IMG/VR virus record: IMGVR_UViG_3300008459_000008
Coordinates: 42,240-106,239 of that record
DNA from: a virus
Strand: one strand, 5' to 3'
DNA length: 64,000 nucleotides
Shown: piece after piece, positions 1 through 61,984 of the stretch
Layout of the letters: each line of letters opens with the position of its first letter
Position numbering within the stretch: position 1 is the stretch's first letter
Program-made: the position numbers and the translations under genes
Notes under the pieces: generated by a model
Told to the model about the DNA's origin: nothing
The model's input: only the letters and a program-made list of their open reading frames with translations
The model's database searches: none

Positions 1-15
1 TAAAATTTTAGACAT

Positions 16-116: not shown

Positions 117-3100
117 ATGAAAAACATTTTATTATACCTTAGTTGTTTGTTAATTACATCCAACTTATTTTCTCAAGTAAAGATGGATGTTTGGAATAAA
201 AATCCAAACACATCTCGTACTATAGCAAAAATAAATCCATCCAAATTACCAGTGTCATTCGAATCGACTTTACCAGATGGTTCAACAGAAATTTATGATA
301 AATGGAACGTCTCTGACATTGAAGTAGAAACATCAACAAAGAAAAAATATACTTTCAAACCAAATGCTTATAAAGCAAGAAAAAATTTAAGTATTTTGAC
401 ATATACTGAAAATGGTTGGGAAGGTATGTATCAATCACCTGATGGTTCATCTTATTCAATGAATCCCACCAGTGTTACTAAAGATGATACAAGACCACAA
501 GGAACTCTAGGTGGTTGTGAAACGATGATTCCGGCAAATATTACGATAAACAAAATACCAGAGAGAACTCCACAAACATCAAATTTATTAACAAATACTC
601 AATATTATGACCCTGCTATAACAATAAATAAAAATTTAACAGTGTATGCAGAGGTGACAAATGACTTACACGTTTCACTAGGAAATAATTTAACAACAAC
701 ACAAAACTGGGTCACTAATTTGTTTCTTGCAGTTTCCAATATTTACGCTCAGGAAGGTCTGACAGTCACATTGAATAAAATTTATGTCTGGCAGTCTGTT
801 GATCCGTATGGTTATCAAACCACAACAACTTCGTCATGTATCCTAGGGGGTGGGTCCCTTTATGGATCAGCATTCTGTACCGGTTTTACTGATAATATTA
901 AAAATAATCTACCAGTCAATCCAAATAACACCACGACTAATGTGACATCTCATTTCAAACATCTATTACATGGTAGAGGTTCTTTAGGTGGTATAGCTTG
1001 GTTAGGAGGCAACTCTGATGGATACAATCCTGATACTTGGAATGTAGTCGGAACGAATTTATCAACCGCAGTGTCAGGTTTCACGAGCACGACAATCCCT
1101 TCACAAGCTACCACAGGTTATAACTGGCCAGTATATGTCACCGCACATGAGATGGGACACAATTGTGGTTCCTCACACACACAGTTTTGTAGGTGGAGAA
1201 ATGATCAAGGTGCCTATTTAGGTAGATTAGATAGCTGTTATAAAGGAGAAAATTACAATTCTACGGGATATTGTACTCAAGAAACTGTAGAACCTTGTCC
1301 TGCCAACTGTACTCAAACCACATATCTAACCACTAAACCAAATAATAATGGTACAATAATGAGTTACTGTCATTTGAATGGTTCTGTAAACTTGTCATCA
1401 AGATTTGGTAAATATCCAAGATTTGCTATGAGAAGTTCTGTGGATAGGACCCCATACATACTCAATCCAATCTCAACTTTACCAGAAGTCGCGTCCGCAA
1501 ATGTCACTTCTATAACATCTTTTACAGCTACTTGTGGAGGGAATGTGACATTTGGTGGTGGTTCAGGTGTAACCGCAAGAGGAGTATGTTGGGCCCCTTA
1601 CCCAACAGAGCCTACAACCGCCAACTCTAAAACCCTCGATGGTACAGGAACTGGATCATTCACTAGTGTTATGACTAATTTGACACCAGCGGTGACTCTT
1701 TATGTAAGAGCGTATGCAACTAATTCTGCCGGAACTTCATACGGAGGATTAAGACTTTTCACACCAGGTCCGCCAGTACCACCAGTTTTGACAACAGTGC
1801 CTATCAATACCGTAGGACAAACAACAGCAAAATCAGGTGGTACAATTTCAAGCGGTGGTGGGGGAACTATTACTAGAAAAGGTGTTGTTTGGAGTATATT
1901 CCCCATACCTGATAATACTACTATAAACTCGGAGATTGGTAATACGAATGATGGTACTGGAACTGCGAACTTTACAAGTTCAATAACAGGCCTTACTCTT
2001 GGTGTAACTTATTACGTGAGAGCATATGCAGAAAATGAGTATGGTGTCGGTTGGGGTAGTGAATTAACATTCACAACTAGTACTGCTACTACACCATCAT
2101 TAACAACCAATTCAGTTACTACATTCACAAATACAACAGCAACTATGGGTGGTAATGTAACTGCGTCCGGTGGAGCCTCAGTTTCAAGACGAGGTGTTTG
2201 TTATGCGACTACTCAAAATCCCACAATCGCTAATACTGTAGTAAATATAGGTACTGGTACTGGCACTTTTTCACAAAGTGTGACTGGATTGAGTCAAGGT
2301 GTAACCTATTATGTGAGAGCCTTTGCAGAAAACCAAGCTGGTCTTAATTATGGCACTCAAGTTAGTTTCAAAACATTGACTATCCCATCTGTGTCAACCA
2401 CCGCAGCTACTAATTTAGCAACAACATCATTTACTACAGGTGGTAATGTAACATCTGCCGGTGGTGGCAGTCTTACTGTTACTGCTAGAGGTGTTTGTTA
2501 TTCTACCTCAACTAGTCCGTCTCTGACTAATGGTACTGTGTTATCAATTGGAACCGGAACTGGCACATTCACAACAAACATCACTGCATTGACACAAGGC
2601 GTCACATACTATGTGAGAGCTTATGCAACTAATACTTATGGTACTGCTTATGGAAGTCAAATCACTGTCAAGACACTGACTGTACCAACAGTCACTACTA
2701 CGGCTTCAACAGCTCTGTCTAAGACAGGTTTCACAACTGGTGGTAATGTAACTTCAGCAGGAGGTGGTACCTTATCAGTCACTGAAAGGGGTATTGTTTA
2801 TTCAACAACGGTACAAGATCCAACTACATCCAATACAAAGGTTTTAGCAGCAACACCAACAGGTACGGGATCTTATACAATAAGTTTGACGGGTTTAACA
2901 CCTGGTACAATTTATTATGTTAGAGCTTATGCAATAAATTCAGTAGGTACTGGTTACGGTTCTCGTATAACAGTGACCACTCCAAGTGAACCAGTATTAT
3001 CAACAACTTCGATAACATCTATATCAACTACAACAGCATCATCTGGTGGAACAATTACATCAAGTTCGGGATCAACAGTTACTGCTAGGGGGGTTTGTTA

Positions 3101-4853
3101 TTCCACATCTCCAAATCCTACGACCGCAAACACAACCACAAGTAATGGGACTGGAACAGGTACATTTACAAGTAGTCTAACTGGACTATCTCCTTCTACT
3201 ACATATTATGTAAAGGCATACGCAATTAACACCACTGGTACGGGTTATGGTAATGAATTATCATTTACTACGACATCTTCTGGATCTTTTCCATCACTAA
3301 CAACTACTGCAGCAAGTGGTATATCTCAAACTACTGCATCTTCTGGTGGAAATGTGACTGCTGATGGTGGTTCAACGGTCACCGCAAGAGGAATTTGTTA
3401 CGCAACCACACAAAATCCAACCCTATCAAATACGGTAGTAAATAGTGGTTCGGGTACTGGTGTTTTTACAAGTTCATTATCTGGATTGACACCAAACACT
3501 ACTTATTATATCAGAGCCTTTGCTACAAATTCAAATGGAACAAATTTCGGAACACAAGTTTCTTTTACGACTTTATCCTCAATTACATTTCCCATTTTAA
3601 CAACAAATACAGTGACATCCATAACTTCAACATCAGCAACTTCTGGTGGTAATATTACAAGTGATGGTGGTGCTACTGTCACTGCAAGGGGGGTTTGTTA
3701 TGCCACAACACAAAATCCAACGACCTCAAATACAGTGATTACAAGTGGTTCAGGTACTGGAACATTTTCAGTGTCGATCACTGGTCTTACAAGTGGTGTA
3801 ACCTATTATGTTAGATCTTATGCTACTAATTCAGCGGGCACAAATTATGGAACCCAACAATCTTTTACAACTTTGGTCTTTCCTTCATTATCTACTACTT
3901 CCGCGACTAGTGTCACTTCTACAACTGCGACAACCGGAGGTAATGTAACTTCAGATGGTGGGGCTACAGTAACCGCTAGAGGTGTGTGTTATGCAACAAC
4001 ACAAACCCCAACCCTTTCAAATTCATTCACATCAAATGGTACCGGTGTGGGATCATTTACCAGTAGTTTAACTGGTCTAACTCAGAATACTACTTACTAT
4101 GTAAGAGCTTATGCGACTAATTCAGTTGGTACAAATTATGGTAGTCAAATCAGTTTTACGACTACTACTGGTGAGACTTTACCTACTGTAACGACTACCG
4201 CAGTGACTTCTGTGACTTCGAACAGTGCCTCTTCAGGTGGAAATGTTACAAGTTCTGGTTCACAATCTGTAACATCTAGAGGAGTAGTCTGGTCGACCTC
4301 AATAGATCCTACAGTGTCATTGACTACAAAAACTGTCAATGGTAGTGGAACAGGTACTTTCACTAGTTCAATAACATCACTATCAGCTTCTACTACTTAT
4401 TATGTAAGAGCTTATGCTACGAGTTCTGTTGGTACTGGTTATGGTAATAATGTTCAATTCACAACATCATCATCACCTACAGCATCTTGCACAGTGACTA
4501 CTTTTGCACCATACCAATTAAATGGTTTTTGGAGATTTAAATGGAATTTGAATTCGAATTGTAACAGCTACACTGTCACTGTAAGTAGATATAATTATAC
4601 GAGTTCTTCTGTCCAACCTCCAGTTGGAGCAACACCTGTTGCTACAGGTGCTAGATTGACCAACTATGTTCCCACGACCAATGAAATTTCTCAAGGATTT
4701 ATTGACCAACAAATGAATCCCCAACCTGCTACCACTGGATATTGGTACAGTTTTGATGTAAAATGTAATGCAACTTCTTGTAGTGGTTCAAACACTACTA
4801 GATCACCTTACTTCTATGTAGGTACTACTCCAGCATCGACAATCGGTAAATAA
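117..4853 (+). CDS. Secreted metzincin-like metalloprotease with 10 Fn3-like repeats
   Basis: The 1578-residue product starts with a flavobacterial signal peptide (residues 1-20, ending FSQ). After a prodomain-like stretch comes a metzincin zinc site, HEMGHNCGSSH at 344-354 (HExxHxxGxxH with catalytic Glu345), and a Met-turn-like IMSYC around Met415, as in reprolysin/M12B-type proteases. Residues about 455-1450 hold ten 90-100-residue repeats with the core RGVCYST...GTGTF...YYVRAYATN...YG...FTT, which read as fibronectin-III-like beta domains. A C-terminal domain (about 1455-1578) is shared with the next two genes. No T9SS sorting domain is visible. The protein probably acts outside the cell on proteins or glycoproteins. 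A protease with a signal peptide is very unusual in a phage. The substrate is unknown, and an adhesive role for the repeats is inference. Confidence 0.85.
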   Translation: MKNILLYLSCLLITSNLFSQVKMDVWNKNPNTSRTIAKINPSKLPVSFESTLPDGSTEIYDKWNVSDIEVETSTKKKYTFKPNAYKARKNLSILTYTENGWEGMYQSPDGSSYSMNPTSVTKDDTRPQGTLGGCETMIPANITINKIPERTPQTSNLLTNTQYYDPAITINKNLTVYAEVTNDLHVSLGNNLTTTQNWVTNLFLAVSNIYAQEGLTVTLNKIYVWQSVDPYGYQTTTTSSCILGGGSLYGSAFCTGFTDNIKNNLPVNPNNTTTNVTSHFKHLLHGRGSLGGIAWLGGNSDGYNPDTWNVVGTNLSTAVSGFTSTTIPSQATTGYNWPVYVTAHEMGHNCGSSHTQFCRWRNDQGAYLGRLDSCYKGENYNSTGYCTQETVEPCPANCTQTTYLTTKPNNNGTIMSYCHLNGSVNLSSRFGKYPRFAMRSSVDRTPYILNPISTLPEVASANVTSITSFTATCGGNVTFGGGSGVTARGVCWAPYPTEPTTANSKTLDGTGTGSFTSVMTNLTPAVTLYVRAYATNSAGTSYGGLRLFTPGPPVPPVLTTVPINTVGQTTAKSGGTISSGGGGTITRKGVVWSIFPIPDNTTINSEIGNTNDGTGTANFTSSITGLTLGVTYYVRAYAENEYGVGWGSELTFTTSTATTPSLTTNSVTTFTNTTATMGGNVTASGGASVSRRGVCYATTQNPTIANTVVNIGTGTGTFSQSVTGLSQGVTYYVRAFAENQAGLNYGTQVSFKTLTIPSVSTTAATNLATTSFTTGGNVTSAGGGSLTVTARGVCYSTSTSPSLTNGTVLSIGTGTGTFTTNITALTQGVTYYVRAYATNTYGTAYGSQITVKTLTVPTVTTTASTALSKTGFTTGGNVTSAGGGTLSVTERGIVYSTTVQDPTTSNTKVLAATPTGTGSYTISLTGLTPGTIYYVRAYAINSVGTGYGSRITVTTPSEPVLSTTSITSISTTTASSGGTITSSSGSTVTARGVCYSTSPNPTTANTTTSNGTGTGTFTSSLTGLSPSTTYYVKAYAINTTGTGYGNELSFTTTSSGSFPSLTTTAASGISQTTASSGGNVTADGGSTVTARGICYATTQNPTLSNTVVNSGSGTGVFTSSLSGLTPNTTYYIRAFATNSNGTNFGTQVSFTTLSSITFPILTTNTVTSITSTSATSGGNITSDGGATVTARGVCYATTQNPTTSNTVITSGSGTGTFSVSITGLTSGVTYYVRSYATNSAGTNYGTQQSFTTLVFPSLSTTSATSVTSTTATTGGNVTSDGGATVTARGVCYATTQTPTLSNSFTSNGTGVGSFTSSLTGLTQNTTYYVRAYATNSVGTNYGSQISFTTTTGETLPTVTTTAVTSVTSNSASSGGNVTSSGSQSVTSRGVVWSTSIDPTVSLTTKTVNGSGTGTFTSSITSLSASTTYYVRAYATSSVGTGYGNNVQFTTSSSPTASCTVTTFAPYQLNGFWRFKWNLNSNCNSYTVTVSRYNYTSSSVQPPVGATPVATGARLTNYVPTTNEISQGFIDQQMNPQPATTGYWYSFDVKCNATSCSGSNTTRSPYFYVGTTPASTIGK
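1480..4470 (+). repeat. Ten tandem Fn3-like coding repeats
   Basis: Ten units of about 280-300 bp encode domains that each begin with a P-x-[LV]-[ST]-T-type strand, then SGGN[VI]T, RGVC[YW], and end in FTT. Units share protein and DNA similarity but are not identical. Boundaries were placed by eye. Confidence 0.8.
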
Positions 4854-4878
4854 GGAATTATCCTCAAATAAAATTTGA

Positions 4879-4885
4879 ATATATA
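4879..4885 (+). promoter_or_regulatory. ATATATA box upstream of second metzincin gene
   Basis: ATATATA ends 24 nt before the start at 4910. The third metzincin gene has no such box and follows after 15 nt, so this box may drive both. Confidence 0.45.
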
Positions 4886-4909
4886 CAAAAAAAACATATC
4901 AAATACAAA

Positions 4910-7900
4910 ATGAAAAAGTTTCTGTTCTTTCTAACAAGTTTGATTTTAACGTTGAATTCGTTTGGTCAAGTGAAATTGAACGTTTGGGACAAAAATCCAA
5001 ATGTATCTAAAACAATCAATAATATAAAACCGAATAATTTACCAAAAACATTCGAGTCGTTGACACCGGATGGTGAAAAAACCATCTATGATAGATGGGA
5101 AGTTCCAGCTATAACAGTTGTGTCATCTAAAGGTAAGTCATACACAACAAAACCAGTGGCTTACAAATCAAGAAATGGATTTGGTGTCTTAACCTATTCC
5201 AAAAATGGGTGGCAGGGTTTACATTCTGGTAGGAGTGGTAAATTTTACTCAATGACACCTTCAAAGGTTAATGAGGACACATCGTCATTGAGATCAGTCG
5301 AAGAATATTGTGGAGGTGCAGGTTTACAACCAAGTAGCCAAAATATTGATCAAAAAAAAGACACAAAAAAGACTCCGTCGGTCGGTAGATTAACTAATAG
5401 TGATTTTTATAATCCATTAGTACCAATCAATAAAACTTGTAGTGTTTATGCAGAAATTGCTTTTGATCTACATACTGCGTTGGGTGGAAATCTAGCTACA
5501 ACTGAAGATTGGGTTACGAGACTTTTTCTAGGTATATCACAAATCTATTTGAATGAGGGTATAACAATATACTTGAATAAAGTTTATGTTTGGGAAGCGT
5601 TAGACCCATATGGATATACCACACAAACAGGTACACAGGATGTAGTTAGAAGTAATGTACTCAATCTATTCGGTGGAAAAATTTTAAATAATCTTCCAAC
5701 CAATCCAAATTCAAACTTTAAACATTTACTTACTAATGCTACTTATGGGGGAGTTGCTTACTACGGACCATTCACACCATCAGATGGATACACTCCCGCA
5801 AGCGATTTATTCGGTCCGACCAGTAGAGTAGGTCTATCTAGTATGAGTAACAAACTAGAGATAGCATCAACACCAACAGATTTAAGTGTTTACAACGATA
5901 GAAGATGGTGTTTACTTGTAGTTGCTCATGAGTTAGGTCATAATTTTGGTTCAAGACACACACAGTGGTGTGGTTGGAAAAGTGATGTTGGTACACTAAT
6001 TGGTAGACTAGACTCTTGTACAAATGGTGAAACTTCAAATCCACTAGGACCTAATTGTGGAGCAACTAGCTACCCATCATATAAACCGACCATAATGAGT
6101 TATTGTCAGTTCCATCAGAATGCTCCTGCTTTTTCACAATTTTTATCCAATGGTTTTGGAAAGTATCCTAGATTTAGTATAAGGACTGGATTAGCCAATT
6201 CATCAGACATACCTTATACAAATGCTTCGATACCAACACTTACCACAACCCCAATAGTTACCTATACCGCTACAACTGCTACATCGGGTGGTAACATCAC
6301 AAGTGATGGTGGTGCTAATGTAACCTCGAGAGGGGTGTGTTGGTCAACATCACCAAACCCGACAATATCGGGATCAAGAACTCTTGATGGTTCCTTTTCA
6401 GGGAGTTTTACTAGTAACATCACAGGTCTTTTAGGTGGAATAACTTATTACGTCAGAGCTTATGCAACCAATCAAGCCGGAACTGCTTATGGTAATGAAG
6501 TTAGTTTCACTACATCAGTACCCCTTGTACCAACACTATCGTCAACAACCGCCGCAACATCTATCACCAATAACAGCGCAACATCAGGTGGTAATGTGAG
6601 TGCAAATGGTGGTGGTTCAATTACCGCTAGGGGTGTTTGTTGGTCAACTTCAACAACCCCAACAATATCAAATTCGAGAACTAATGATGCTGTAGGTACA
6701 GGTACAGGCTCTTTCACAAGTAGTTTGACGGGTCTATCAGCTGGTACAACATACTATGTAAGATCTTACGCAACAAACAGTGCAGGAACGGGTTATGGAC
6801 CACAGATAACATTCTCAACATTTTCCGCATCTTCAATACTTATAAACACTACTGCTCTTACGGGATTAGCTCCCAAAAACGTGACGACGGGTGGAACAAT
6901 TACTTCAGACGGAGGTTCTGCAGTGACAGCAAGAGGGGTGTGTTGGTCAACAACAAGCCCACCAACTATATCGAATAGTAAGGTCAATACTGGAACAGGT
7001 ACAGGAACGTATACAAGTACGGTTAGTGGATTATCTCCATCTACGACATATTATTTGAGGTCATTTGCTACAAACTCTAGTGGTACAACATATGGTAATG
7101 AACTCTCCTTTACAACCACATCTGTTCCAACATTCATTAATGGTACTCCTAGTTATGTCTCACAAACATCTATAAAAACCAATTACACTATAAGTTTTCC
7201 AAATCAATCGTTTTCCAGCCATGCTTTGGGTGCTTCAACGACAAACCCACCGGATTCCTATAATCTGAATTCATCATCTTATACTTTTAATTCTGTATCA
7301 GGAACATACCAATCACTTCTCGGTAGAAAATCGACTTCACAAGGTCTTCAACCTTCAACGACATATTTTATTAGACCTATAGCAACAGACATATATGATA
7401 ATTTCTATTACGGACCAATAACACAAGCTACTACGCTTGCTCCTTCTCTACCTGTCTGTACTACGTATGTTGCAACTGAAGTTAGTACCCCGACTACAAA
7501 TGCATCGACCGCTAAATTGAGTGGTAAAGTTACATCAATAGGTGGGGCTATCACAGAAAGAGGTTTTTGTTATTCTACAACACAAAATCCAACCACATCA
7601 AATAGTAAAGTTACTACAACAACTTGTTCATCGGATGATGATTGTTTATTATCATTTACAAACACAGTGGCTAATTTTACTCCTGGTACTACCTACTATG
7701 TAAGATCCTACGCGATAAATCCAAGTGGTGTTGGTTATGGGAATCAAGTATCATTCACAACACCGATTTATGTCTATCAAGGACCACCAATAGTCGTTAT
7801 TGACTCAATCAGAAACATCTCAACTGTTGGTGCTAAACTTTATGGTCGAGTGACAAACAGAGGGGGTTCTGATTGTGTATTGAGTAGTGGATGTAGAGGT

Positions 7901-10900
7901 GTAGTTATAAGTGCAGTCACAAATAGTCCATCGAGTGGATGTGGAGTAGATGCAAACTTTGATCCTATATGTTGGTCATTTGTTGAAACTCCAAATGTTC
8001 AAAGTATAACAGGTGCTTTTGAAGTGGATTTCCAGGCAGGCAATCAATTGATGAAAGCAAATACAACTTATTATGTTAGGGCATACGCCACTAATTTTTT
8101 CGCAAATAACCAAAACAATTACGGATACTCCGCAACAAGTACATTTAAAACATTATTAACTGGAACAACACCCCTACTTTATACCAACACTACTGTGAGT
8201 ATCACAACCACGAGCGCAACAAGTGGTGGATTTATAACTTCACAGGGTGGTGCAAGTGTCACTCAAAAGGGAGTAGTGTGGTCTACATCTCCAAATCCAA
8301 CCACATCACTTTCTACAAAAACTTCTAATGGAACAGGCACTGCAGCTTATTCAAGTAATATGACAGGTCTCACACCTAATACTTTATACTATGTAAGAGC
8401 ATACGCTGTAAATAGTTTTGGAACATCTTATGGTCCTCAAGTACAATTCACTACAAATGCGAGTGCCGGACTAGCCACATTAACAACTACATCAGTCACA
8501 AATTTATCTACAACATCGGTGACATCAGGTGGTAACATTACAAACAGTGGTGGTACAAATGTTACTGCAAGAGGCGTATGTTACTCCACATCAACTAACC
8601 CAACAATAACTAACGGCACAGTTGTCGCGAGTGGTTCTGGTACAGGATCGTTCACAACAAATATCACTGGATTGATTCAAGGTAATACTTATTTTTTAAG
8701 GGCTTTTGCTACAAATACTTCCGGTACAAGTTATGGTAATCAAGTACAAATCACTACACTAACACTACCATCAATAACCACTACCGTCGCAAGTAATGTA
8801 ACCAGCACAACAGTAATTACTGGTGGTAATGTAACATCGGATGGTGGTTCGACTATTACGGAAAGAGGTGTCTGTTATGAAACAACACAGAACCCAACTA
8901 CAGGAAATTTTAAACTAGTATCAACTGGCACGACAGGTACGTTTACATCAAACATAACTGACTTGACACCAGGCACAACTTACTATGTAAGGGCATACGC
9001 TATAAATTCTGTAGGAACTCAATACGGAACTCAAATAAGTTTTACTACCACCGCAGCACAAACAGTACCCACTGTGACAACAACTAATCCAACATCTATC
9101 ACAACTAACACGGTAAGTAGTGGTGGTACTGTTAGTTCGGATGGTAATTCCACGGTTTCATCAAGAGGTGTTGTTTGGTCAACATCTTCGGGTCCAACAA
9201 TCAATCTTACAACTAAAACGGTTAATGGTAGTGGAACTGGTAGTTTCACAAGTTCAGTTGGAGGTCTTTTACCGGGTGTACTTTACTACATAAGAGCTTA
9301 TGCTACAAATTCAATTGGTACATCTTATGGTTCAGAATTCACATTCACCACTTTAACAACTACACCCACATTATCTTCTACCATTACAGCATCAAATATA
9401 ACTCAGACCTCAGCAATCTCAGGAGGAAACGTTACAAGTGATGGTGGGATAACAATTACTGAAAGGGGGGTATGTTGGTCAACATCAAGTAATCCGACTG
9501 TTAGTCTAAGTACAAAAACAATAGATGGATCTGGTGTTGGTAGTTTTGTTAGCGATCTCACAGGATTATCTGCGAGTACTACTTATTATGTTAGAGCTTA
9601 CGCTACTAATTCAAATGGTACTAGTTATGGAACACAAATATCATTTACTACTTTATCATCAACTACGGTTCCTACTGTCACAACCACAACCGCCTCATCA
9701 ATTACATTAACATCGGCCGTATCAGGTGGTAATGTGACTTCGGACGGAGGTACTGTTGTGACTGTGAGGGGGGTAGTTTGGTCTACATCTCCTTCACCGA
9801 CAGTATCTTTAACAACTAAAACTCAAGATGGTACAGGAATTGGTACGTTTACAAGCTCTATGACCGGTTTAACCGCGTCAACAATTTACTATTATAGAGC
9901 ATATGCGACTAACTCTCAAGGGACATCATATGGTAATCAACTATCATTTACCACCACTGCAAACTTACCTGTTGTGACAACAACAAACGTAAGTTCCGTC
10001 ACACTCACAGGTGCTGTTTCTGGTGGTAACGTAACATCAACTGGTGGAGCAACAGTCACAGCAAGAGGGGTATGTTGGTCAACATCACCTAATCCTACAA
10101 TATTGAACTCAAAGACAACTGATGGAAGTGGGACTGGTACATTTACAAGTACTATCTCTAATTTATCACAAAATACAACCTATTATGTCAGAGCATACGC
10201 AACTAACTCATCTGGTACCGCATATGGGACAGAATTACAATTCATCACATCAAACACATCTTTACCAACTGTTAATACAACATCTGTCACATCTATAGAT
10301 TTCACAAGTGCTATATCTGGAGGTAATGTGGTATCAGACGGTAATTCAACAGTGACATCGAGAGGTGTGGTGTGGTCTGAAACACAAAATCCAACCCTTA
10401 GTAATTCATTTACAGTAGATGATAATGGTACTGGTACATTTACAAGTAATCTCACAAATTTGACTGCCGGCGTCACATATTATGTAAGAGCGTATGCAAC
10501 AAATTCCTTAGGTACATCATATGGAAACCAAGTATCATTCGCAACAATACCTGGTCAAGCACCAGAGGTATCAACAAACATTATAAATAACGTCACATCC
10601 ACTAATGCTGAAGTTGTTTATAGTATAAACTCAATAGGTGGTGGAACATTATCATTAAAAGGTATTTGTTATTCTACATCTCCGAACCCCACAACATCTA
10701 ATCAGAAGGTAGAAGAAGTCTGTGCAATTGAGACCCCATGTGAGATCGGTCAATATACAATTACTTTCATAAATCCATTGTCTCCAAATGTGACTTATTA
10801 TGTAAGAGCCTACGCAACAAGTGAATTTGGAACCTCATATGGAGAAGAACTTTCCTTCACAACATTGATTAATTTCCCAACACTCACAACCACATCTATA

Positions 10901-12121
10901 TCTGAAATAACATCAACTACAGCTAGTAGTGGTGGTACTATAGTAGACGTGGGTGGTGGGTCTATAAGTGCGAAGGGAGTTTGTTGGTCAACTTCATCAA
11001 ATCCTACACTTAATAATTCATTCACAACTGATGGAAGTGGTCCGAATTTCTTCTCTAGTCAAATTACAGGATTATTACCTGGTGTGTTATACTATGTAAG
11101 ATCATACGCCACTAATCAAACTGGTACAAATTATGGAAATCAAGTTACGTTCACTACAATATCAGTGTCTGTACCTACACTAACAACAAATAGCGTCACT
11201 TCAATTACTAACTCATCTGCTATATCCGGTGGAAATATCACATCAGATGGGGGGTCTACTATAACAGCAAGGGGAGTTGTTTATTCCACATCACAAAATC
11301 CAACCTTATCAAATAATAGAACGTTTGACGGTTCGGGAATTGGTTCGTTTAGTTCTTCTATAACTGGTTTATCACCTGGTGTTACCTATTATGTTAGATC
11401 ATATGCGACCACATCGGGTGGTACAGGATACGGACAACAAAATATTTTTACAACTTCTGGTTCAATTCCAACTGTATCTACCACCACAATTACAAACATT
11501 AGCTCGTCAGGTGCGACGTCTGGTGGTAATGTAACATCGTCTGGCGGATCTTCAATCACTTCTAGAGGGGTTGTTTGGTCAACATCTCCAAATCCAACTG
11601 TATCTTTATCAACCAAGACATCAAATGGAACAGGAACAGGAATATTTACAAGTACAATAATCGGATTATCCCCATCAACACTTTATTATGTTAGATCTTA
11701 CGCTACAAACAGTACAGGTACTGCATATGGTACAGAGTTAACATTTACAACTTCATTGAGTGGTGGTGGAAGTTGTGCGATTGGTGGTCTAACAGTTACA
11801 AGAGTTAATAATGCTTGGAACTTTACATTTAACATAAATCCAAATTGTACAAGTTATACGGTGAACGTGTGTAGATATTCAAATACTAACCCAGCAATAC
11901 CACCAACTGCAGGTCAAACACCAGTAGCATGTGCGGTTAGAAATAACATGACTAGTTATGTACCAACTTCTTCGGAAATAAGCGCTGGTGTTATAACAAG
12001 AGTGATGAGTCCACCACCAGCCAATACCGGTGTGTGGTACAGTGTTGACGTAACTTGTAATGGTACTTGTACAGGTACCAAAACTACTAGGTCTGCATAT
12101 TTCTATAATCCAATCCCATAA
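4910..12121 (+). CDS. Giant secreted metzincin-like metalloprotease with about 18 Fn3-like repeats
   Basis: This 2403-residue paralogue of the gene at 117 has the same order: signal peptide 1-20 (ending SFGQ), prodomain-like region, zinc site HELGHNFGSRH at 340-350, Met-turn TIMSYC about 65 residues later, an array of Fn3-like repeats (about residues 435-2280), and the shared C-terminal domain. I count 18 repeats; the 4th to 6th and the 15th are divergent, lacking the SGGN or RGVC core or carrying insertions. It is the largest gene in the window. All zinc ligands and the catalytic Glu are present, so activity is expected. Role outside the cell is inferred from the signal peptide; the target is unknown. 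Confidence 0.85.
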   Translation: MKKFLFFLTSLILTLNSFGQVKLNVWDKNPNVSKTINNIKPNNLPKTFESLTPDGEKTIYDRWEVPAITVVSSKGKSYTTKPVAYKSRNGFGVLTYSKNGWQGLHSGRSGKFYSMTPSKVNEDTSSLRSVEEYCGGAGLQPSSQNIDQKKDTKKTPSVGRLTNSDFYNPLVPINKTCSVYAEIAFDLHTALGGNLATTEDWVTRLFLGISQIYLNEGITIYLNKVYVWEALDPYGYTTQTGTQDVVRSNVLNLFGGKILNNLPTNPNSNFKHLLTNATYGGVAYYGPFTPSDGYTPASDLFGPTSRVGLSSMSNKLEIASTPTDLSVYNDRRWCLLVVAHELGHNFGSRHTQWCGWKSDVGTLIGRLDSCTNGETSNPLGPNCGATSYPSYKPTIMSYCQFHQNAPAFSQFLSNGFGKYPRFSIRTGLANSSDIPYTNASIPTLTTTPIVTYTATTATSGGNITSDGGANVTSRGVCWSTSPNPTISGSRTLDGSFSGSFTSNITGLLGGITYYVRAYATNQAGTAYGNEVSFTTSVPLVPTLSSTTAATSITNNSATSGGNVSANGGGSITARGVCWSTSTTPTISNSRTNDAVGTGTGSFTSSLTGLSAGTTYYVRSYATNSAGTGYGPQITFSTFSASSILINTTALTGLAPKNVTTGGTITSDGGSAVTARGVCWSTTSPPTISNSKVNTGTGTGTYTSTVSGLSPSTTYYLRSFATNSSGTTYGNELSFTTTSVPTFINGTPSYVSQTSIKTNYTISFPNQSFSSHALGASTTNPPDSYNLNSSSYTFNSVSGTYQSLLGRKSTSQGLQPSTTYFIRPIATDIYDNFYYGPITQATTLAPSLPVCTTYVATEVSTPTTNASTAKLSGKVTSIGGAITERGFCYSTTQNPTTSNSKVTTTTCSSDDDCLLSFTNTVANFTPGTTYYVRSYAINPSGVGYGNQVSFTTPIYVYQGPPIVVIDSIRNISTVGAKLYGRVTNRGGSDCVLSSGCRGVVISAVTNSPSSGCGVDANFDPICWSFVETPNVQSITGAFEVDFQAGNQLMKANTTYYVRAYATNFFANNQNNYGYSATSTFKTLLTGTTPLLYTNTTVSITTTSATSGGFITSQGGASVTQKGVVWSTSPNPTTSLSTKTSNGTGTAAYSSNMTGLTPNTLYYVRAYAVNSFGTSYGPQVQFTTNASAGLATLTTTSVTNLSTTSVTSGGNITNSGGTNVTARGVCYSTSTNPTITNGTVVASGSGTGSFTTNITGLIQGNTYFLRAFATNTSGTSYGNQVQITTLTLPSITTTVASNVTSTTVITGGNVTSDGGSTITERGVCYETTQNPTTGNFKLVSTGTTGTFTSNITDLTPGTTYYVRAYAINSVGTQYGTQISFTTTAAQTVPTVTTTNPTSITTNTVSSGGTVSSDGNSTVSSRGVVWSTSSGPTINLTTKTVNGSGTGSFTSSVGGLLPGVLYYIRAYATNSIGTSYGSEFTFTTLTTTPTLSSTITASNITQTSAISGGNVTSDGGITITERGVCWSTSSNPTVSLSTKTIDGSGVGSFVSDLTGLSASTTYYVRAYATNSNGTSYGTQISFTTLSSTTVPTVTTTTASSITLTSAVSGGNVTSDGGTVVTVRGVVWSTSPSPTVSLTTKTQDGTGIGTFTSSMTGLTASTIYYYRAYATNSQGTSYGNQLSFTTTANLPVVTTTNVSSVTLTGAVSGGNVTSTGGATVTARGVCWSTSPNPTILNSKTTDGSGTGTFTSTISNLSQNTTYYVRAYATNSSGTAYGTELQFITSNTSLPTVNTTSVTSIDFTSAISGGNVVSDGNSTVTSRGVVWSETQNPTLSNSFTVDDNGTGTFTSNLTNLTAGVTYYVRAYATNSLGTSYGNQVSFATIPGQAPEVSTNIINNVTSTNAEVVYSINSIGGGTLSLKGICYSTSPNPTTSNQKVEEVCAIETPCEIGQYTITFINPLSPNVTYYVRAYATSEFGTSYGEELSFTTLINFPTLTTTSISEITSTTASSGGTIVDVGGGSISAKGVCWSTSSNPTLNNSFTTDGSGPNFFSSQITGLLPGVLYYVRSYATNQTGTNYGNQVTFTTISVSVPTLTTNSVTSITNSSAISGGNITSDGGSTITARGVVYSTSQNPTLSNNRTFDGSGIGSFSSSITGLSPGVTYYVRSYATTSGGTGYGQQNIFTTSGSIPTVSTTTITNISSSGATSGGNVTSSGGSSITSRGVVWSTSPNPTVSLSTKTSNGTGTGIFTSTIIGLSPSTLYYVRSYATNSTGTAYGTELTFTTSLSGGGSCAIGGLTVTRVNNAWNFTFNINPNCTSYTVNVCRYSNTNPAIPPTAGQTPVACAVRNNMTSYVPTSSEISAGVITRVMSPPPANTGVWYSVDVTCNGTCTGTKTTRSAYFYNPIP
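6215..11755 (+). repeat. About 18 tandem Fn3-like coding repeats
   Basis: About 18 units of roughly 280-330 bp. Long near-identical stretches around the RGVCWSTS and YYVRAYATN segments make the array prone to recombination with the arrays in the flanking genes. Confidence 0.8.
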
Positions 12122-12136
12122 AAAAACTAAAATTGA

Positions 12137-15100
12137 ATGAAAAAGTTTCTTCTACTAATTCTATTGACACTAACTTCCGTTCTGTCCTTTGGGCAGACGG
12201 AAGTTGATATTTGGAAAAAATCCAACAAAAAAATATTTTCTCAAAGAAAATTTACATTTCCAAAAACATTTGTTTCCAAATCACCATCAGGTAAACAATT
12301 GACTTACCAACGTGTGGAACATCCATATATCAAGATAGAAACATCTAGTGGTAAGAAATGGACAAAGAAACCAATTATTTATCAATCTACTTCAGATTTT
12401 GGTGTAATAACATATGACGGTAAAAATTGGAGTGGTATACATACAGAGGATGGATACAATGTAAGTAACTTGACGAAAGAAAAGGTTACTAATGTCAAAA
12501 TGGATGCTGAAAAATTCAGTTTTGGTGAAGGAGATGTTTTACTCGCGCCCACAAAATCAAATAAAAAGATAGGAAGGTCAATCCAAAACAATCCAAATTT
12601 TTATGATCCTTACATCAGAATTAATAAAACTTGTGGAGTTTATGTGGAAGTAACAAATGATTTATATAAATTTTGGGGTTCAGATACTGGTAGAGTAACA
12701 CAGTATGTTACAACTATACTAACAAATGTTATAGCTCTATATGACAGAGAGGGTATAAATGTCACATTGAATAAAATTTTTGTTTGGGACACACCTGATC
12801 CTTATGGAAACCCATTCGATAATACACAGTATCTAAATCAATTTACAGATAACATCAACAAAAATATACCAACTACACCAGAATCTCATTTTAAACACTT
12901 ATTACACAATAAGAATTTGGGTGGTATAGCTTGGATAAATGGTGAATCAGATGGATACATCACATCTGCAAATCTTGATCCATACTATACCTGTGCGGTC
13001 ACAGGAATTGGTTCAAATATAGTAGTTAATTCTAATGTCACTTATTCTTGGCCAGTAATGTGTTTCACACATGAAATGGGACACAATCTTGGTTCAAAAC
13101 ATACTCATTGGTGTGGATGGAAAAATGAATCCAATCAAGCCATAGGTAGAATTGACAGTTGTTACAGAGGAGAAAGCACAGATGGGCCAGATAATTGCAC
13201 GTCATCTACTTATACAGTAGTTAAATCAAACAACAGAGGCTCTGTAATGAGTTATTGTCATCTGAATGGTGCCATAAGTTTCACAACTGGATTTGGTAGA
13301 TTACCAAGATATTCAATAAGATCTAATCTAAATGATGCACCAGAGGTGCCATTTGACACACCACAAGTTCCAACAGTAACTATTGATACTGGTACTCAAA
13401 AAACAGCTACTTCTGTTTTAATGACTGGAAATATTGTAATGACTGGAGAAACTATAATTCAAGAAAGAGGTTTCGTGTGGACAAATTCACAAATCATAAT
13501 GCCTACATTGAATTTGACAACTAAAATTGCGGTCGGCTCAGGTAGTGGAACATTTCAATCACAAATTACAACATTAACTGCAGGAGGACGTTTTTGGTTT
13601 AGGGCATATGCGAAAAATGCTACTGGAGTTTACTATAGTGATACAGTAAGGGTACAATTGGTCTCAACGTCTGTACCAAGTCTGACGACAAATCCTGTAA
13701 CTCTAATTACAAATATATCGGCTCAAACTGGTGGCACATACATATCGATTGGTAATATTTCAATTCAAGAAAGAGGTATAGTGTACAGCACTTCCAATCA
13801 ACTTCCTACCGTAGATGACACTAAAGTGATCACACCATCACCAAATAACACAAACTTCGTTCAGAATTTGACGGGTCTAACTCCCAACACCACTTATTAC
13901 ATAAGGGCTTTTGCTAGAAATAGTCCGTCAATTTTTTCTTACGGAAATGTACAAACTTTTCAAACTTTACCAAATGAGTCGGTATCTTTTGGAGTACCTT
14001 TAGCTACCGTCAATAGTAGTACACAAATAACCCCTAGTGTTTTTATCACATCTACTGGTAATGGTGGGGTCATATCTGAAAGAGGTTTCTACATAGGAAC
14101 TACACCAAATCCTGAAAATAACATACTTAATAAAAGAGTTGCGGTTTTGGGACAAGCCACTACTATGGCATTAGCTATAATAAATCTAACACCCAATACA
14201 CTTTATTATATCAAAGGTTTTGCGACCACTCAATTTGGTACTTTTTATACACCCGAATTCACATCCACTACACTTAGGAGTATACTAGTGATGGATGAAG
14301 TTAGTGGAATAGAAGCTACTAAAGCTACGTTCAAATATACTATTGGTCCAACTACATCTATCATACCATCATCAGGTGTTTTGTTATCAACCAACATAAC
14401 ACCAACTAGAGCAAACAGTCAGTTCTTTTTTCAATCGACATATGTTGGACAAGGACAAGGCACAATTGTTGGACAAGACCTACTTCCAAATACGACTTAC
14501 TATGCTAGAGGGGTAATACCATTTACTTCTGGTGATTTCTTTTCAACTAATATACTACAGTTTCAAACTACGGGAGTTGTTGGTACTCCATCGGTTAGTA
14601 CTTTGGGATCACCCACAAAAACAAAAAATTCGATTGTAGTTAGAGGTGAAGTTGTGTCAACTGGATCATCACCTGTATTTAACAGGGGAATTTGTTATTC
14701 AACCGCACCAAATCCTACTATAAATAATTCAGTTATTGTATCAGGTCAGGGGATTGGTCAATATATTGTAACTATAAACAATTTAGTACCTAGTACAATA
14801 TATTATATTAGAGCGTATGCTACCAACAAGTCCGGCACTTCTTATGGTTCAGAAATTAATATTTCAACCAGTGGTGATATCCCAACAATCATAACAAACT
14901 CAATCAACAACATTTCATTAACCACTGCTAATGGAGGTGGTGAAATAACTCTTTCGGGTGGACGTGTTGTTACATCTAGGGGTGTAATTTGGTCAACCAA
15001 TCCCAATCCAACAATAAATTTGTCTACAAAAACAGTAGATGGTAGCGGAATTGGCATATTCACAAGTGCAATCACTGGATTGGTACAGAATACGAAATAT

Positions 15101-16153
15101 TATGTCAGAGCTTATGCCATAAATGATAATGGGGTTGGATATGGTAATGAAATTAATTTCACTACTTTGCCTAGTCCAACTACAGCAAATGTAATAACAA
15201 ATATTGTCACAAATATTTTACCAACATCAGCGACATCCGGTGGTAATGTTACTTATGATGGTGGAACACCTGTGGTATCCAAGGGGATTTGTTGGTCGAC
15301 TTCTCAGAACCCAACAATCGACCTTACCACAAAAACTATGGACGGTAGTGGATTGGGTCCCTTCGTTAGTCAGATATCCAACTTGACCCTCGGCAACACT
15401 TACTATGTAAGGGCTTACGCTGTTAATTCTACTGGAACTAGTTATGGTGTACAGTATTCATTTACAACTTCGTTAGGCATCCCAATCGTTTTGACTAATC
15501 CGGTAAGTGGGATTACAATAACATCAGCGAGTGTTGGAGGGAATGTAACTTCTTCTGGAAATGCACCTGTAACTCAGAGAGGAATTTGTTGGTCAATAAA
15601 TCAGAACCCAACAACAAGTGATAATATAGTACCAAGTGGAAACGGAACTGGAGTTTTTTCCGGAAATATATTAGGACTATCCTCCTCCACAACATATTTT
15701 ATCAGAGCTTATGCTACAAACTCTTTGGGAACTTCCTATGGATCACAGATTTCATTTACCACTTCACCACAATCTGGAGGTACTTGTCAAATATCTGGAC
15801 TAACATCCTATCTAAATCAAACGAACAAATGGGAATTTAATTACAATATAAATTTAAAATGTGCTACATATTCTGTAAATGTGTGTAGGTATAATTACAC
15901 AGATCCTAATAGTCAACCACCTTCAAATTTACAACCAACAAGTTGTGGAGTAAGAAATAGCATGAATGCTTATGTACCAACAATCCAAGAAACAAATAAT
16001 GGGTACATCCAAAAAGAAATGATACCTCAACCGACGGCTTCGACAAAATCTGGTTTTGGTGGATATTGGTACAGCATAGATGTCAGATGTTCATCACAAA
16101 ATTGTTTGGGATCAAATTTGACTAAATACTATTTTTATGTACCAGGTATGTAA
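12137..16153 (+). CDS. Secreted metzincin-like metalloprotease with about 8 Fn3-like repeats
   Basis: The third paralogue (1338 residues) starts 15 nt after the previous stop, so the two are probably co-transcribed. It has a signal peptide (1-20, ending SFGQ), the zinc site HEMGHNLGSKH at 312-322, a Met-turn-like VMSYC, about eight Fn3-like repeats (residues about 410-1205, the first five divergent), and the same C-terminal domain (about 1210-1338). The repeats differ more from each other than those of the two upstream genes, so this copy may be older or under other selection. It is followed by a phage tail gene on the same strand. Confidence 0.85.
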   Translation: MKKFLLLILLTLTSVLSFGQTEVDIWKKSNKKIFSQRKFTFPKTFVSKSPSGKQLTYQRVEHPYIKIETSSGKKWTKKPIIYQSTSDFGVITYDGKNWSGIHTEDGYNVSNLTKEKVTNVKMDAEKFSFGEGDVLLAPTKSNKKIGRSIQNNPNFYDPYIRINKTCGVYVEVTNDLYKFWGSDTGRVTQYVTTILTNVIALYDREGINVTLNKIFVWDTPDPYGNPFDNTQYLNQFTDNINKNIPTTPESHFKHLLHNKNLGGIAWINGESDGYITSANLDPYYTCAVTGIGSNIVVNSNVTYSWPVMCFTHEMGHNLGSKHTHWCGWKNESNQAIGRIDSCYRGESTDGPDNCTSSTYTVVKSNNRGSVMSYCHLNGAISFTTGFGRLPRYSIRSNLNDAPEVPFDTPQVPTVTIDTGTQKTATSVLMTGNIVMTGETIIQERGFVWTNSQIIMPTLNLTTKIAVGSGSGTFQSQITTLTAGGRFWFRAYAKNATGVYYSDTVRVQLVSTSVPSLTTNPVTLITNISAQTGGTYISIGNISIQERGIVYSTSNQLPTVDDTKVITPSPNNTNFVQNLTGLTPNTTYYIRAFARNSPSIFSYGNVQTFQTLPNESVSFGVPLATVNSSTQITPSVFITSTGNGGVISERGFYIGTTPNPENNILNKRVAVLGQATTMALAIINLTPNTLYYIKGFATTQFGTFYTPEFTSTTLRSILVMDEVSGIEATKATFKYTIGPTTSIIPSSGVLLSTNITPTRANSQFFFQSTYVGQGQGTIVGQDLLPNTTYYARGVIPFTSGDFFSTNILQFQTTGVVGTPSVSTLGSPTKTKNSIVVRGEVVSTGSSPVFNRGICYSTAPNPTINNSVIVSGQGIGQYIVTINNLVPSTIYYIRAYATNKSGTSYGSEINISTSGDIPTIITNSINNISLTTANGGGEITLSGGRVVTSRGVIWSTNPNPTINLSTKTVDGSGIGIFTSAITGLVQNTKYYVRAYAINDNGVGYGNEINFTTLPSPTTANVITNIVTNILPTSATSGGNVTYDGGTPVVSKGICWSTSQNPTIDLTTKTMDGSGLGPFVSQISNLTLGNTYYVRAYAVNSTGTSYGVQYSFTTSLGIPIVLTNPVSGITITSASVGGNVTSSGNAPVTQRGICWSINQNPTTSDNIVPSGNGTGVFSGNILGLSSSTTYFIRAYATNSLGTSYGSQISFTTSPQSGGTCQISGLTSYLNQTNKWEFNYNINLKCATYSVNVCRYNYTDPNSQPPSNLQPTSCGVRNSMNAYVPTIQETNNGYIQKEMIPQPTASTKSGFGGYWYSIDVRCSSQNCLGSNLTKYYFYVPGM
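13365..15765 (+). repeat. About 8 Fn3-like coding repeats, divergent
   Basis: Eight units by eye. The last three keep the RGVCWST core and the earlier ones are degenerate. Confidence 0.65.
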
Positions 16154-16212
16154 TAAAAGTTATTTTATCAAAAGAATATATAAATAGATTAATAGGAATA
16201 AAAACCGAAATA

Positions 16213-16255: not shown

Positions 16256-16879
16256 ATGGCACTTCCACATTTTACCCAACTTCAAATGACCGGTTCACCT
16301 GGTGGACCTGGGTCTAGACCACAAGAACCAGTATATTTGAACCTGTTTGAGTGTACATTTGTCCTTCCAACAATTGTTGCAGCTCGTTATGGAACAGATG
16401 CTGGACCGGGTCTACTTTTACAACAAGCTACAAAAATAACTTTTGACGTAACTCCATCATTGGAATCAGTTGAACAGAAATTCAAATATTCTGGTAGAGC
16501 TTTTATGAAAACCCCAACAAAAACCACTACAGACTTAACTCTTGGATTCAATGTTAACGTTAATGATACTGGTAGTATGGAGACTTGGAACATTCTTAAA
16601 TCATGGTATGATTTAGTCTGGAACTCTCAAAACGGATATTTGCACTACAAAGCAGATATTGTTGGAACTATCATCGTTAACCAACATGATAAAAAGGGGG
16701 TTGTTTTAAGGAGATTAACCTTTCAGAACTGTCAAATCAAATCAATTGGTAATCCAGCCTTAACTTGGGATGGTGGTGAAATTTGGAATTTTGAATCAGC
16801 ATTTATAGCTGATTACTGGATTGATGAATACATCGATCAGAACTTCACAATTGTGCCGCCACTTGTATCAGGATATTAA
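16256..16879 (+). CDS. Tail tube protein (T4 gp19-like)
   Basis: The 207-residue product has the size and character of myovirus tail tube monomers: no cysteines in the core, alternating beta strands, and a C-terminal half with paired strands (VLRRLTFQNCQIKSIGNPAL) ending in a WNFESAF-type strand, as in gp19-like proteins. Such subunits stack into the inner tube inside the contractile sheath. It has its own upstream ATATATA boxes and ends at a strong bidirectional terminator, as expected for a very highly expressed structural gene. Family assignment is from pattern and context only. Confidence 0.75.
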   Translation: MALPHFTQLQMTGSPGGPGSRPQEPVYLNLFECTFVLPTIVAARYGTDAGPGLLLQQATKITFDVTPSLESVEQKFKYSGRAFMKTPTKTTTDLTLGFNVNVNDTGSMETWNILKSWYDLVWNSQNGYLHYKADIVGTIIVNQHDKKGVVLRRLTFQNCQIKSIGNPALTWDGGEIWNFESAFIADYWIDEYIDQNFTIVPPLVSGY

Positions 16880-29845: not shown

Positions 29846-29870
29846 ATATTGAATAATATTCTTACATTTG
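29846..29870 (+). promoter_or_regulatory. Host-type (Bacteroidota sigma-A) promoter
   Basis: A TTG at about 29841-29843 is followed after 19 nt by TACATTTG (29863-29870), a match to the Bacteroidota -33/-7 consensus TTG ... TAnnTTTG. The ATG of the T9SS-cargo gene is 3 nt downstream, so the message is leaderless or nearly so. Confidence 0.65.
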
Positions 29871-29873
29871 TAT

Positions 29874-30803
29874 ATGGTAAAATCAATCTTTCTGATAGTT
29901 ATATTATTTGTCACCACAAATTCAAATTGTCAAACTTTTATCCAACCCAACAGCCACTGGCACCGTATGTGGGACTTCGTATCTTGTCCAGGTTTAGGGT
30001 ATGATCACCACAGGTATGTAGGAGACACTCTATTCAACAATAATTCCTATTCCAAAATAGAAAATAAACAATATTCTGTATACTTGGACCAAATGAATGG
30101 GACACAAAATTATTATATTCATCAAAAAAAATCAACTTACTTGAGACAAAGCTTTGACACAATTTTTATTTTTGATGAAGAGTATTCTGAGGATAGATTT
30201 GGGTGGTCTCAAAACCCAAGTGTTGGTGAATTATATTATCTTGGTAAGGTCAAAAATTTTATCTCTCAAAACGATATTAAAGTTTATTCGAGGGTAGATT
30301 CTATTTCAACCGAAATCATACAAGGGCAGGAAACTAAATGGATTTATTCAACTACGAATTTAGATTCTTTAGGCAATCCAATAAATTATTATACCACAAA
30401 ATTTAATTATATTATCAAATTAAACACTTTGATGGGTCCAATAACTGAATGGATAATTCCAAGTACAACTTCTCTTTCTTGTTTTGAGTCATCAATCACC
30501 ACCAAGATAAATTATTCTGGTCTAGATTGTAATGCTGGACTTGATTTTGATTGTGAGACTACAACTCATAGTCACGAAAATAAACTGAATGATATAAAAA
30601 TATATCCAAATCCGATTATTGATTATTTTACAATCACGAATTGCAAAAATAAAATTATTAGTTTGAGAAACACTGATGGTAAACAATTATCTAAGACAAC
30701 GATTATATCTGACAATCATAAGATAGATCTGAAATTTTATCCCAATGGAACGTATTTTATTTTTTTGGATGAAAAATTTTTACAAAGAATTGTAAAAATT
30801 TAA
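29874..30803 (+). CDS. Secreted protein with T9SS type A sorting domain
   Basis: The start is the ATG at 29874 (309 residues), giving a signal peptide MVKSIFLIVILFVTTNSNCQ. The C-terminal 75 residues (IKIYPNPIIDYFTITNC ... GKQLSK ... LKFYPNGTYFIFLDE ... RIVKI) show the hallmarks of a type IX sorting domain: YPNP start, a central N/D-G-K turn, a [Y/F]xxGxYF strand and a basic end. Such domains take proteins across the outer membrane of Bacteroidota. The middle part is beta-rich, without known motifs. A host-type promoter lies directly upstream. The protein depends on the host T9SS, so it should be exported during infection or lysogeny-like carriage. Confidence 0.8.
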   Translation: MVKSIFLIVILFVTTNSNCQTFIQPNSHWHRMWDFVSCPGLGYDHHRYVGDTLFNNNSYSKIENKQYSVYLDQMNGTQNYYIHQKKSTYLRQSFDTIFIFDEEYSEDRFGWSQNPSVGELYYLGKVKNFISQNDIKVYSRVDSISTEIIQGQETKWIYSTTNLDSLGNPINYYTTKFNYIIKLNTLMGPITEWIIPSTTSLSCFESSITTKINYSGLDCNAGLDFDCETTTHSHENKLNDIKIYPNPIIDYFTITNCKNKIISLRNTDGKQLSKTTIISDNHKIDLKFYPNGTYFIFLDEKFLQRIVKI

Positions 30804-61878: not shown

Positions 61879-61984
61879 TGGGCCCTGTTGGATTCGAACC
61901 AACTACCTGCGGTTTATTTCTTCCAAGTGAATAAATACTATTCAAAAATGAGACCGCTGCTCTGACCGATTGAGCTAAGAGCCC
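61879..61984 (-). tRNA. tRNA with a 39-nt anticodon loop, CAT anticodon possible
   Basis: On the minus strand the acceptor stem (61984-61978 with 61886-61880), D arm (61975-61959, AGCTC/GAGC type), anticodon stem GCGGT/ACCGC (61957-61953 with 61913-61909), variable loop and T arm (61903-61887, TTCGAA loop) are all canonical. The anticodon loop, however, is 39 nt long (61952-61914). It begins CTCAT and ends AA, so removing 32 nt would leave CTCATAA with anticodon CAT (Met/Ile2-type). The insert contains a small hairpin (GAATA/TATTC). CCA is not encoded. Confidence 0.8.

What the first reader, a model, noticed from the sequence alone, without database searches (positions are those of the whole stretch)
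117..16153. Three tandem giant secreted metzincin proteases in a phage genome
Three paralogues of 1578, 2403 and 1338 residues each have a signal peptide, an intact HExxHxxGxxH zinc site with a Met-turn-like MSYC, an Fn3-like repeat array and a shared C-terminal domain, directly before a tail tube gene. Phages very rarely encode exported proteases, and I know of none with this architecture. They may be released by infected cells to degrade surface proteins, biofilm or competitors, or help spread. Phage origin is inferred from the adjacent tail genes.
Basis: partly seen in the sequence, partly recalled or inferred. Interest (0 to 1): 0.85.

Follow-up and report, generated by a model that had tools for sequence, protein, structure and literature searches.

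The report
Exported giant metalloproteases in huge phage
A very large virus of Bacteroidota bacteria carries three side-by-side genes for giant protein-cutting enzymes that appear built to leave the infected cell, inserted at a junction where its relatives have almost nothing, which suggests that such phages act on the world outside the cell they are killing.

Summary
Three ORFs (1578, 2403 and 1338 aa) each carry a signal peptide, HExxHxxGxxH, MSYC, an Fn3-like array and a shared ~115-aa C-terminal domain ("CTD-X"). Pfam scores and an AlphaFold/Foldseek match make them adamalysin/reprolysin-type metzincins with a probable prodomain.

The contig is a genuine phage: a 106-kb piece of a huge T4-like phage close to the 634–642-kb Mahaphages (portal 74–79% identical). 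Misassembly is very unlikely. The flanking genes, a gp47/SbcD-like nuclease and the tail tube, lie within 143–1624 bp of each other in that order in 49 of 80 related loci, and none of the 80 carries a protease. The 16-kb cassette is therefore an accessory insertion. It has phage-type GC3 and phage promoter motifs.

Relatives occur in more than 20 IMG/VR contigs, but tblastn with four family members found none in 50,697 GenBank phage records. Most have signal peptides; a minority lack one and sit in large putative virion proteins. Bacterial relatives are Bacteroidota proteins, and 65 of 76 end in a T9SS sorting domain. A, B and C do not, although the same phage encodes another protein that does.

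Most likely they are Sec-exported effectors acting outside the cytoplasm. Substrate and release route are unknown.

The parts
1..15 (-). 5' end of gp47/SbcD-like nuclease gene (G000:41127-42254, 375 aa), conserved left neighbour
   Evidence: ORF in L006; 50% identical homologues adjacent to the tail tube in LR756502 and LR745206
87..94 (+). phage promoter-type motif GATATATA upstream of protease A
   Evidence: 39 of 48 [AG]ATATATA occurrences lie in the 60 bp upstream of genes, 1.15 expected; position
117..4853 (+). protease A, 1578 aa: signal peptide, probable prodomain, reprolysin-like catalytic domain (zinc site 1146-1178, MSYC 1359-1370), about 10 Fn3-like repeats, CTD-X
4476..4832 (+). 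CTD-X of protease A
   Evidence: profile A3, residues 1454-1572, E 1e-39
4878..4885 (+). phage promoter-type motif AATATATA upstream of protease B (position approximate)
4910..12121 (+). protease B, 2403 aa (zinc site 5927-5959, MSYC 6095-6106), about 18 Fn3-like repeats, CTD-X
11762..12109 (+). CTD-X of protease B
   Evidence: residues 2285-2400, E 2e-43
12137..16153 (+). protease C, 1338 aa (zinc site 13070-13102, MSYC 13247-13258), about 8 Fn3-like repeats, CTD-X; 15 bp after B, no motif of its own, probably co-transcribed
   Evidence: AF2 model of residues 21-405 matches snake-venom/ADAM metalloproteases
15773..16141 (+). CTD-X of protease C; AF2 model beta-sandwich, pLDDT 86
16256..16879 (+). 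tail tube gene, conserved right neighbour; TATAAATA motifs at 16179 and 16244
   Evidence: phrog_45 5.7e-13; 67% and 61% identical homologues in LR756502 and LR745206; motifs
29868..30803 (+). separate phage-encoded secreted protein (311 aa) with a T9SS type A sorting domain
   Evidence: TIGR04183 26.4/23 bits, PF18962 34/27 bits

Best explanation
The three genes are an accessory cassette of phage-encoded, Sec-exported zymogen metalloproteases (adamalysin/reprolysin type), carried by a huge T4-like phage of Bacteroidota. Proposed working: transcribed in the phage programme from AATATATA-type promoters (motif shown; timing inferred), exported through the host Sec system (signal peptides by hydropathy; export inferred), and activated by loss of the N-terminal beta-rich prodomain through the disordered linker (modelled; inferred). 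The Fn3-like array acts as a reach/spacer and CTD-X as a binding or retention module (inferred). They then cut proteins of the cell envelope or surrounding matrix of the host and its neighbours, at the surface or after release at lysis, which would help progeny leave and spread. The catalytic family was taken from Bacteroidota, where it is normally a T9SS-secreted protease (supported by the tree and C-terminus survey). The phage trio lacks the T9SS tail, so crossing of the outer membrane before lysis is open.
For: Intact catalytic and Met-turn motifs in all three. Pfam over cut-off. AF2 pTM 0.86 with prodomain, disordered linker and catalytic domain; Foldseek to snake-venom/ADAM metalloproteases down to 2e-11. 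Signal-peptide-like starts in 28 of 35 phage copies including A, B and C. Cassette sits between gp47 and tail tube, neighbours in related phages. Phage-like GC3 and promoter motif. dN/dS 0.09-0.27 between close phage copies of relatives, so functional there. Phage-only clade (8 rows, SH-aLRT 97) nested beside freshwater Cytophagaceae sequences. T9SS tail in 65 of 76 bacterial relatives. In small phages the gene lies close to an N-acetylmuramoyl-L-alanine amidase-like gene (L009, L013). Mahaphages over 634 kb are predicted to infect Bacteroidetes (PMC7162821).
Against: No experiment shows expression, export, activity or a substrate. Signal peptides were judged by hydropathy. No A/B/C match to PF18962, TIGR04183 (C only tested) or CHU_C, so no known route across the outer membrane. 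Some relatives (L050, L051, L053, L056) lack a signal peptide and look virion-borne. The cassette is absent from 80 related loci and from five huge-phage records searched whole, so it is dispensable and may serve a host- or niche-specific role other than spread.
Confidence: 0.6

Rival explanations
1. They are virion proteins (tail fibre or adhesin with a protease head) that digest surface layers during adsorption; the N-terminal hydrophobic stretch is not a functional signal peptide.
For: They lie next to the tail tube. Relatives inside probable tail-fibre (L053/L146, L050) or crAss-like structural (L056) proteins exist. Fn3 arrays and beta-sandwich tips are common in tail fibres; CTD-X has weak matches to tail proteins among many others.
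Against: Those virion-type relatives lack a signal peptide, while A, B, C and 25 other copies have one. In all 49 same-order relatives the tube gene is present without the proteases, so they are not part of the core tail. Bacterial relatives are secreted enzymes.
Confidence: 0.15
2. They act on the infected cell itself: exported proteases shave surface proteins (phage receptors, gliding adhesins) and so exclude superinfecting phages.
For: Surface-localised proteins of huge phages have been proposed to alter susceptibility to other phages (PMC7162821), and T9SS cargo of Cryophage likewise (PMC7468147). Three diverged copies could cover several receptors. CTD-X could tether the enzymes to the cell.
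Against: No T9SS tail to place them on the surface before lysis. No receptor or substrate information.
Confidence: 0.2
3. Host DNA misassembled onto a phage contig, or a recently captured, decaying host gene cluster with no phage function.
For: Family is mainly cellular in Bacteroidota; cassette absent from 80 related loci.
Against: Phage genes on both sides in the order of relatives; no stop codons in 5,319 codons; GC3 equal to the phage; phage promoter motifs before A and B; nearest relatives are phage copies; catalytic residues intact in all three.
Confidence: 0.03

Closest known systems
Bacteroidota reprolysin-like secreted metallopeptidases (Pfam PF13688/PF13582/PF13583, M12-type)
   Same: Same catalytic family and motif; N-terminal signal peptide; large multidomain secreted proteins; nearest to freshwater Cytophagaceae
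   Different: 65 of 76 bacterial relatives end in a T9SS sorting domain; the phage trio has CTD-X instead, which only 3 of 83 bacterial relatives in the tree carry
Adamalysins: snake-venom metalloproteinases and ADAMs (M12B)
   Same: Catalytic fold, HExxHxxGxxH and Met-turn; prodomain before the catalytic domain
   Different: About 14-20% identity; no disintegrin/cysteine-rich domains found; Fn3 array and CTD-X instead
Cryophage T9SS cargo proteins (PMC7468147)
   Same: Phage-encoded secreted enzymes in a Bacteroidota phage, proposed to work outside the cell
   Different: Those are an endoglucanase, a GH39 and a PA14 protein with T9SS tails; A-C are metalloproteases without one
Zinc metallopeptidase of Maribacter phage Molly (PMC8776804)
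   Same: Exported (lipoprotein) zinc peptidase of a flavobacterial phage, proposed to degrade matrix
   Different: 199 aa, single copy; tblastn with four members of this family found nothing in the GenBank phage collection
Mahaphage huge phages LR756502, LR745206 (PMC7162821)
   Same: Portal 79/74% and tail tube 67/61% identical; same gp47-tube neighbourhood
   Different: No metzincin of this family with a catalytic domain in five huge-phage records searched whole

Membership tests
Adamalysin/reprolysin-type (M12B-like) metzincins | HExxHxxGxxH zinc site and a downstream Met-turn | tested here: met
   All three; near-invariant across 63 relatives
Adamalysin/reprolysin-type (M12B-like) metzincins | Curated profile score | tested here: met
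   Reprolysin_3 or _5 over cut-off in A, B, C
Adamalysin/reprolysin-type (M12B-like) metzincins | Metzincin fold closest to adamalysins | tested here: met
   AF2 of C (pTM 0.86); best PDB hits snake-venom/ADAM, E 2e-11
Adamalysin/reprolysin-type (M12B-like) metzincins | Zn-dependent proteolysis | not testable with these tools
   Needs expressed protein
T9SS cargo | Sec signal peptide | tested here: met
   Hydropathy and pattern only
T9SS cargo | C-terminal sorting domain type A or B (PF18962/TIGR04183, PF13585) | tested here: not met
   A, B, C without a Pfam match; C also without a TIGR04183 match; 65 of 76 bacterial relatives match PF18962
Virion tail-fibre proteins | No signal peptide; part of the conserved tail gene set | tested here: not met
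   Signal peptides present; genes absent from 80 related tail loci
Mahaphage-related huge phages | Close structural genes and gene order | tested here: met
Mahaphage-related huge phages | Genome of several hundred kb; clade placement by phylogeny | not tested
   Record is a 106-kb linear fragment; no marker-gene tree built

The most novel reading that the evidence does not exclude
CTD-X is a phage-enriched addressing domain: a common C-terminal tag that some Bacteroidota phages put on several exported effectors (three proteases here; a protease plus four proteins without an HExxH site in tandem on the 91-kb contig) to hold them at the infected cell surface or on debris and progeny, in place of the host T9SS tail. 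These phages would then run their own secretome.
Probability: 0.2. Interest if true: 0.8.

Novelty: new variant of a known kind. Interest (0 to 1): 0.62.

Why it matters
Lytic phages are usually thought to act inside the cell they kill. A huge phage spending 16 kb on three giant exported proteases, in a family found recurrently in metagenomic Bacteroidota phages but not in the GenBank phage collection, suggests that phages act on the extracellular world (envelope, matrix, neighbours, rival phages). It gives concrete targets: an assayable enzyme, an undescribed C-terminal domain, and a natural comparison between exported and apparently virion-borne versions of one protease.

Tried and rejected
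Host-DNA misassembly: rejected on gene order, GC3 and promoter motif. CTD-X as a phage-only domain: rejected, since three Cytophagaceae MAG contigs with chromosomal neighbour genes have one copy each. CTD-X as a general host sorting signal: disfavoured, 1 of 395 Bacteroidia genomes (that search scored only about the first 11 candidates per genome, so it is a lower bound). CTD-X fold: only Fn3/Ig-like matches at E about 0.01 (PDB) and 0.002 (viral), no function. Degenerate-pattern searches with CTD-X alignments or a single CTD-X gave nothing usable. The four G004 proteins without HExxH that share CTD-X have no Pfam match. Papers: no hit for the phrase 'phage-encoded metalloprotease' and nothing on this architecture in the held library; most subscription papers are not in it. 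Weak A2 hits in LR745206 and G436 cover only signal peptide and prodomain columns in ORFs without HExxH.

Full report
WHAT IS THERE. The window is bases 42240-106239 of a 106,239-base IMG/VR record. The three ORFs are as described. All three have a lysine-starting hydrophobic N-terminus ending in a typical Bacteroidota cleavage context (..SFGQ/..LFSQ), intact HExxHxxGxxH and MSYC, Pfam reprolysin matches over cut-off, long Fn3-like arrays with a ~100-residue period (27 copies of the core 75-nt motif in the three genes), and a shared C-terminal domain, here called CTD-X. The first 460 residues of A are 46% and 38% identical to those of B and C.

FOLD. AF2 on residues 21-405 of C with 63 sequences gives pLDDT 82 and pTM 0.86: a beta-rich N-terminal domain, a low-confidence linker (about 87-130 of the model) and a metzincin catalytic domain. 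Best PDB matches are snake-venom metalloproteinases and ADAMs (E 2e-11); profragilysin also matches. The prodomain role is inferred from position. CTD-X is a confident beta-sandwich (pLDDT 86) with only weak Fn3/Ig-like matches.

IT IS A PHAGE. The same record carries head maturation protease, portal, terminase, clamp loader, tail sheath, tail tube and baseplate wedge genes. The portal is 79% and 74%, and the tail tube 67% and 61%, identical to LR756502 (642 kb) and LR745206 (635 kb). The four largest curated genomes of that study are 634, 636, 642 and 735 kb; the genomes over 634 kb were placed in the Mahaphage clade with predicted Bacteroidetes hosts (PMC7162821). The window's phage is therefore probably a fragment of a genome of several hundred kb.

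THE CASSETTE IS AN INSERTION. Left of A is a gp47/SbcD-like nuclease gene, right of C the tail tube. In LR756502 and LR745206 the homologues are neighbours with 810 and 158 bp between them; the LR756502 gap holds a 218-aa ORF and the LR745206 gap is empty. Of the 80 best tail-tube relatives in IMG/VR, 49 have gp47 directly upstream (gap 143-1624 bp), 20 have it just downstream, 11 show none, and no protease or CTD-X profile hit occurs in any (loci hold up to 10 kb per side, several less). Searched whole, five huge-phage records and 17 further contigs give no member of the family with a catalytic domain. The three genes thus occupy an otherwise nearly empty junction. Their GC3 (0.215-0.229) equals that of the phage (0.233 +/- 0.032), and A and B carry the [AG]ATATATA motif, 39 of 48 copies of which lie in the 60 bp upstream of genes (1.15 expected). 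C follows B by 15 bp.

RELATIVES IN PHAGES. Profile searches found 11, then 37, IMG/VR loci (with overlap), many on contigs with phage markers, including a 464-kb contig with the same sheath and portal families. tblastn of four family members against 50,697 GenBank phage records found nothing. Of 35 phage copies used in the tree, 28 start with a signal peptide or lipobox-like sequence. Those without one (L050, L051, three tandem copies in L053, L055, L056) include copies in large tail-fibre-like or crAss-like structural genes (these module names are my reading of gene context and sequence, not profile hits). L055 may simply be start-truncated. Close pairs show dN/dS 0.09-0.27, so the enzymes are maintained in those phages. 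In L009 and L013 the gene is near an amidase-like gene.

RELATIVES IN BACTERIA. The one genome scan gave 207 relatives, with the 79 loci kept nearly all from Bacteroidota. 65 of 76 complete C-termini match the T9SS sorting domain; 3 of 26 phage C-termini do, and A, B, C do not. CTD-X occurs in 3 of 83 bacterial relatives in the tree, on contigs with chromosomal genes, and in 1 of 395 Bacteroidia genomes (reduced sensitivity). In the quick tree, A, B, C, two copies of a 178-kb phage and three more phage copies form a phage-only clade (SH-aLRT 97) near freshwater Cytophagaceae sequences; the phage label needs 6 changes (long branches, midpoint root).

T9SS. The same phage encodes a different 311-aa secreted protein with a T9SS type A tail over cut-off (window 29868-30803). 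All four Mahaphage genomes of 634-735 kb have at least one such tail over cut-off, while none of 14 control genomes does. So the host very probably has a T9SS and the phages use it, yet the proteases lack its known signal.

CTD-X. On the 91-kb contig G004 five tandem exported proteins share CTD-X; one is a protease, and the other four have no HExxH. Together with its rarity in bacteria this points to a binding or retention module used by phages. That is inference.

MECHANISM. Shown from sequence: family, intact site, phage context, insertion, conservation in relatives. Inferred: export, activation, location, substrate. I favour envelope or matrix degradation aiding exit and spread; superinfection exclusion and virion use are rivals. 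Nothing here discriminates spread from exclusion.

NOVELTY. Exported enzymes encoded by Bacteroidota phages are known in principle: Cryophage T9SS cargo (PMC7468147), T9SS-domain proteins in crAss-like phages (PMC6949934), and the Molly lipoprotein zinc peptidase (PMC8776804). New as far as the held library shows: adamalysin-type giant proteases in tandem, in a huge phage, with CTD-X instead of the T9SS tail.

Noticed in passing
window 61879-61984 (-): tRNA-like gene (Rfam tRNA 57.9 bits), 106 nt, CAU-type anticodon loop apparently interrupted by a ~32-nt insert; ARAGORN does not call it.
   Followed up: partly
window 29868-30803 (+): Phage-encoded secreted protein with a T9SS type A sorting domain over cut-off.
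   Followed up: yes
window 58114-60366 (-): 750-aa protein with a signal-peptide-like start and a C-terminus resembling, but not matching, a T9SS tail.
   Followed up: no
LR756502, LR745206, LR756504, LR756501 (loci L140-L143): All four Mahaphage genomes of 634-735 kb encode at least one protein with a T9SS sorting domain over cut-off.
   Followed up: partly
L146:10080-19001: 173-kb phage contig with three tandem metzincins without signal peptide amid large same-strand genes; the preceding 1097-aa protein and the first two metzincins share a C-terminal motif (YYVEA.GFS.CA).
   Followed up: partly
L056:690-9629: 2979-aa ORF, probably crAss-like structural, with an embedded HELGHNIGSSH metzincin site; the first 1103 residues have no Pfam match.
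   Followed up: partly
L019:2157-14462: Tandem exported proteins on a 91-kb contig sharing CTD-X without HExxH (835, 2491, 418, 372 aa), next to a protease.
   Followed up: partly
G010:C1:269827-278295 (L021): 464-kb phage contig with two tandem tail sheath genes of 1404 and 1380 aa with nearly identical ends.
   Followed up: no
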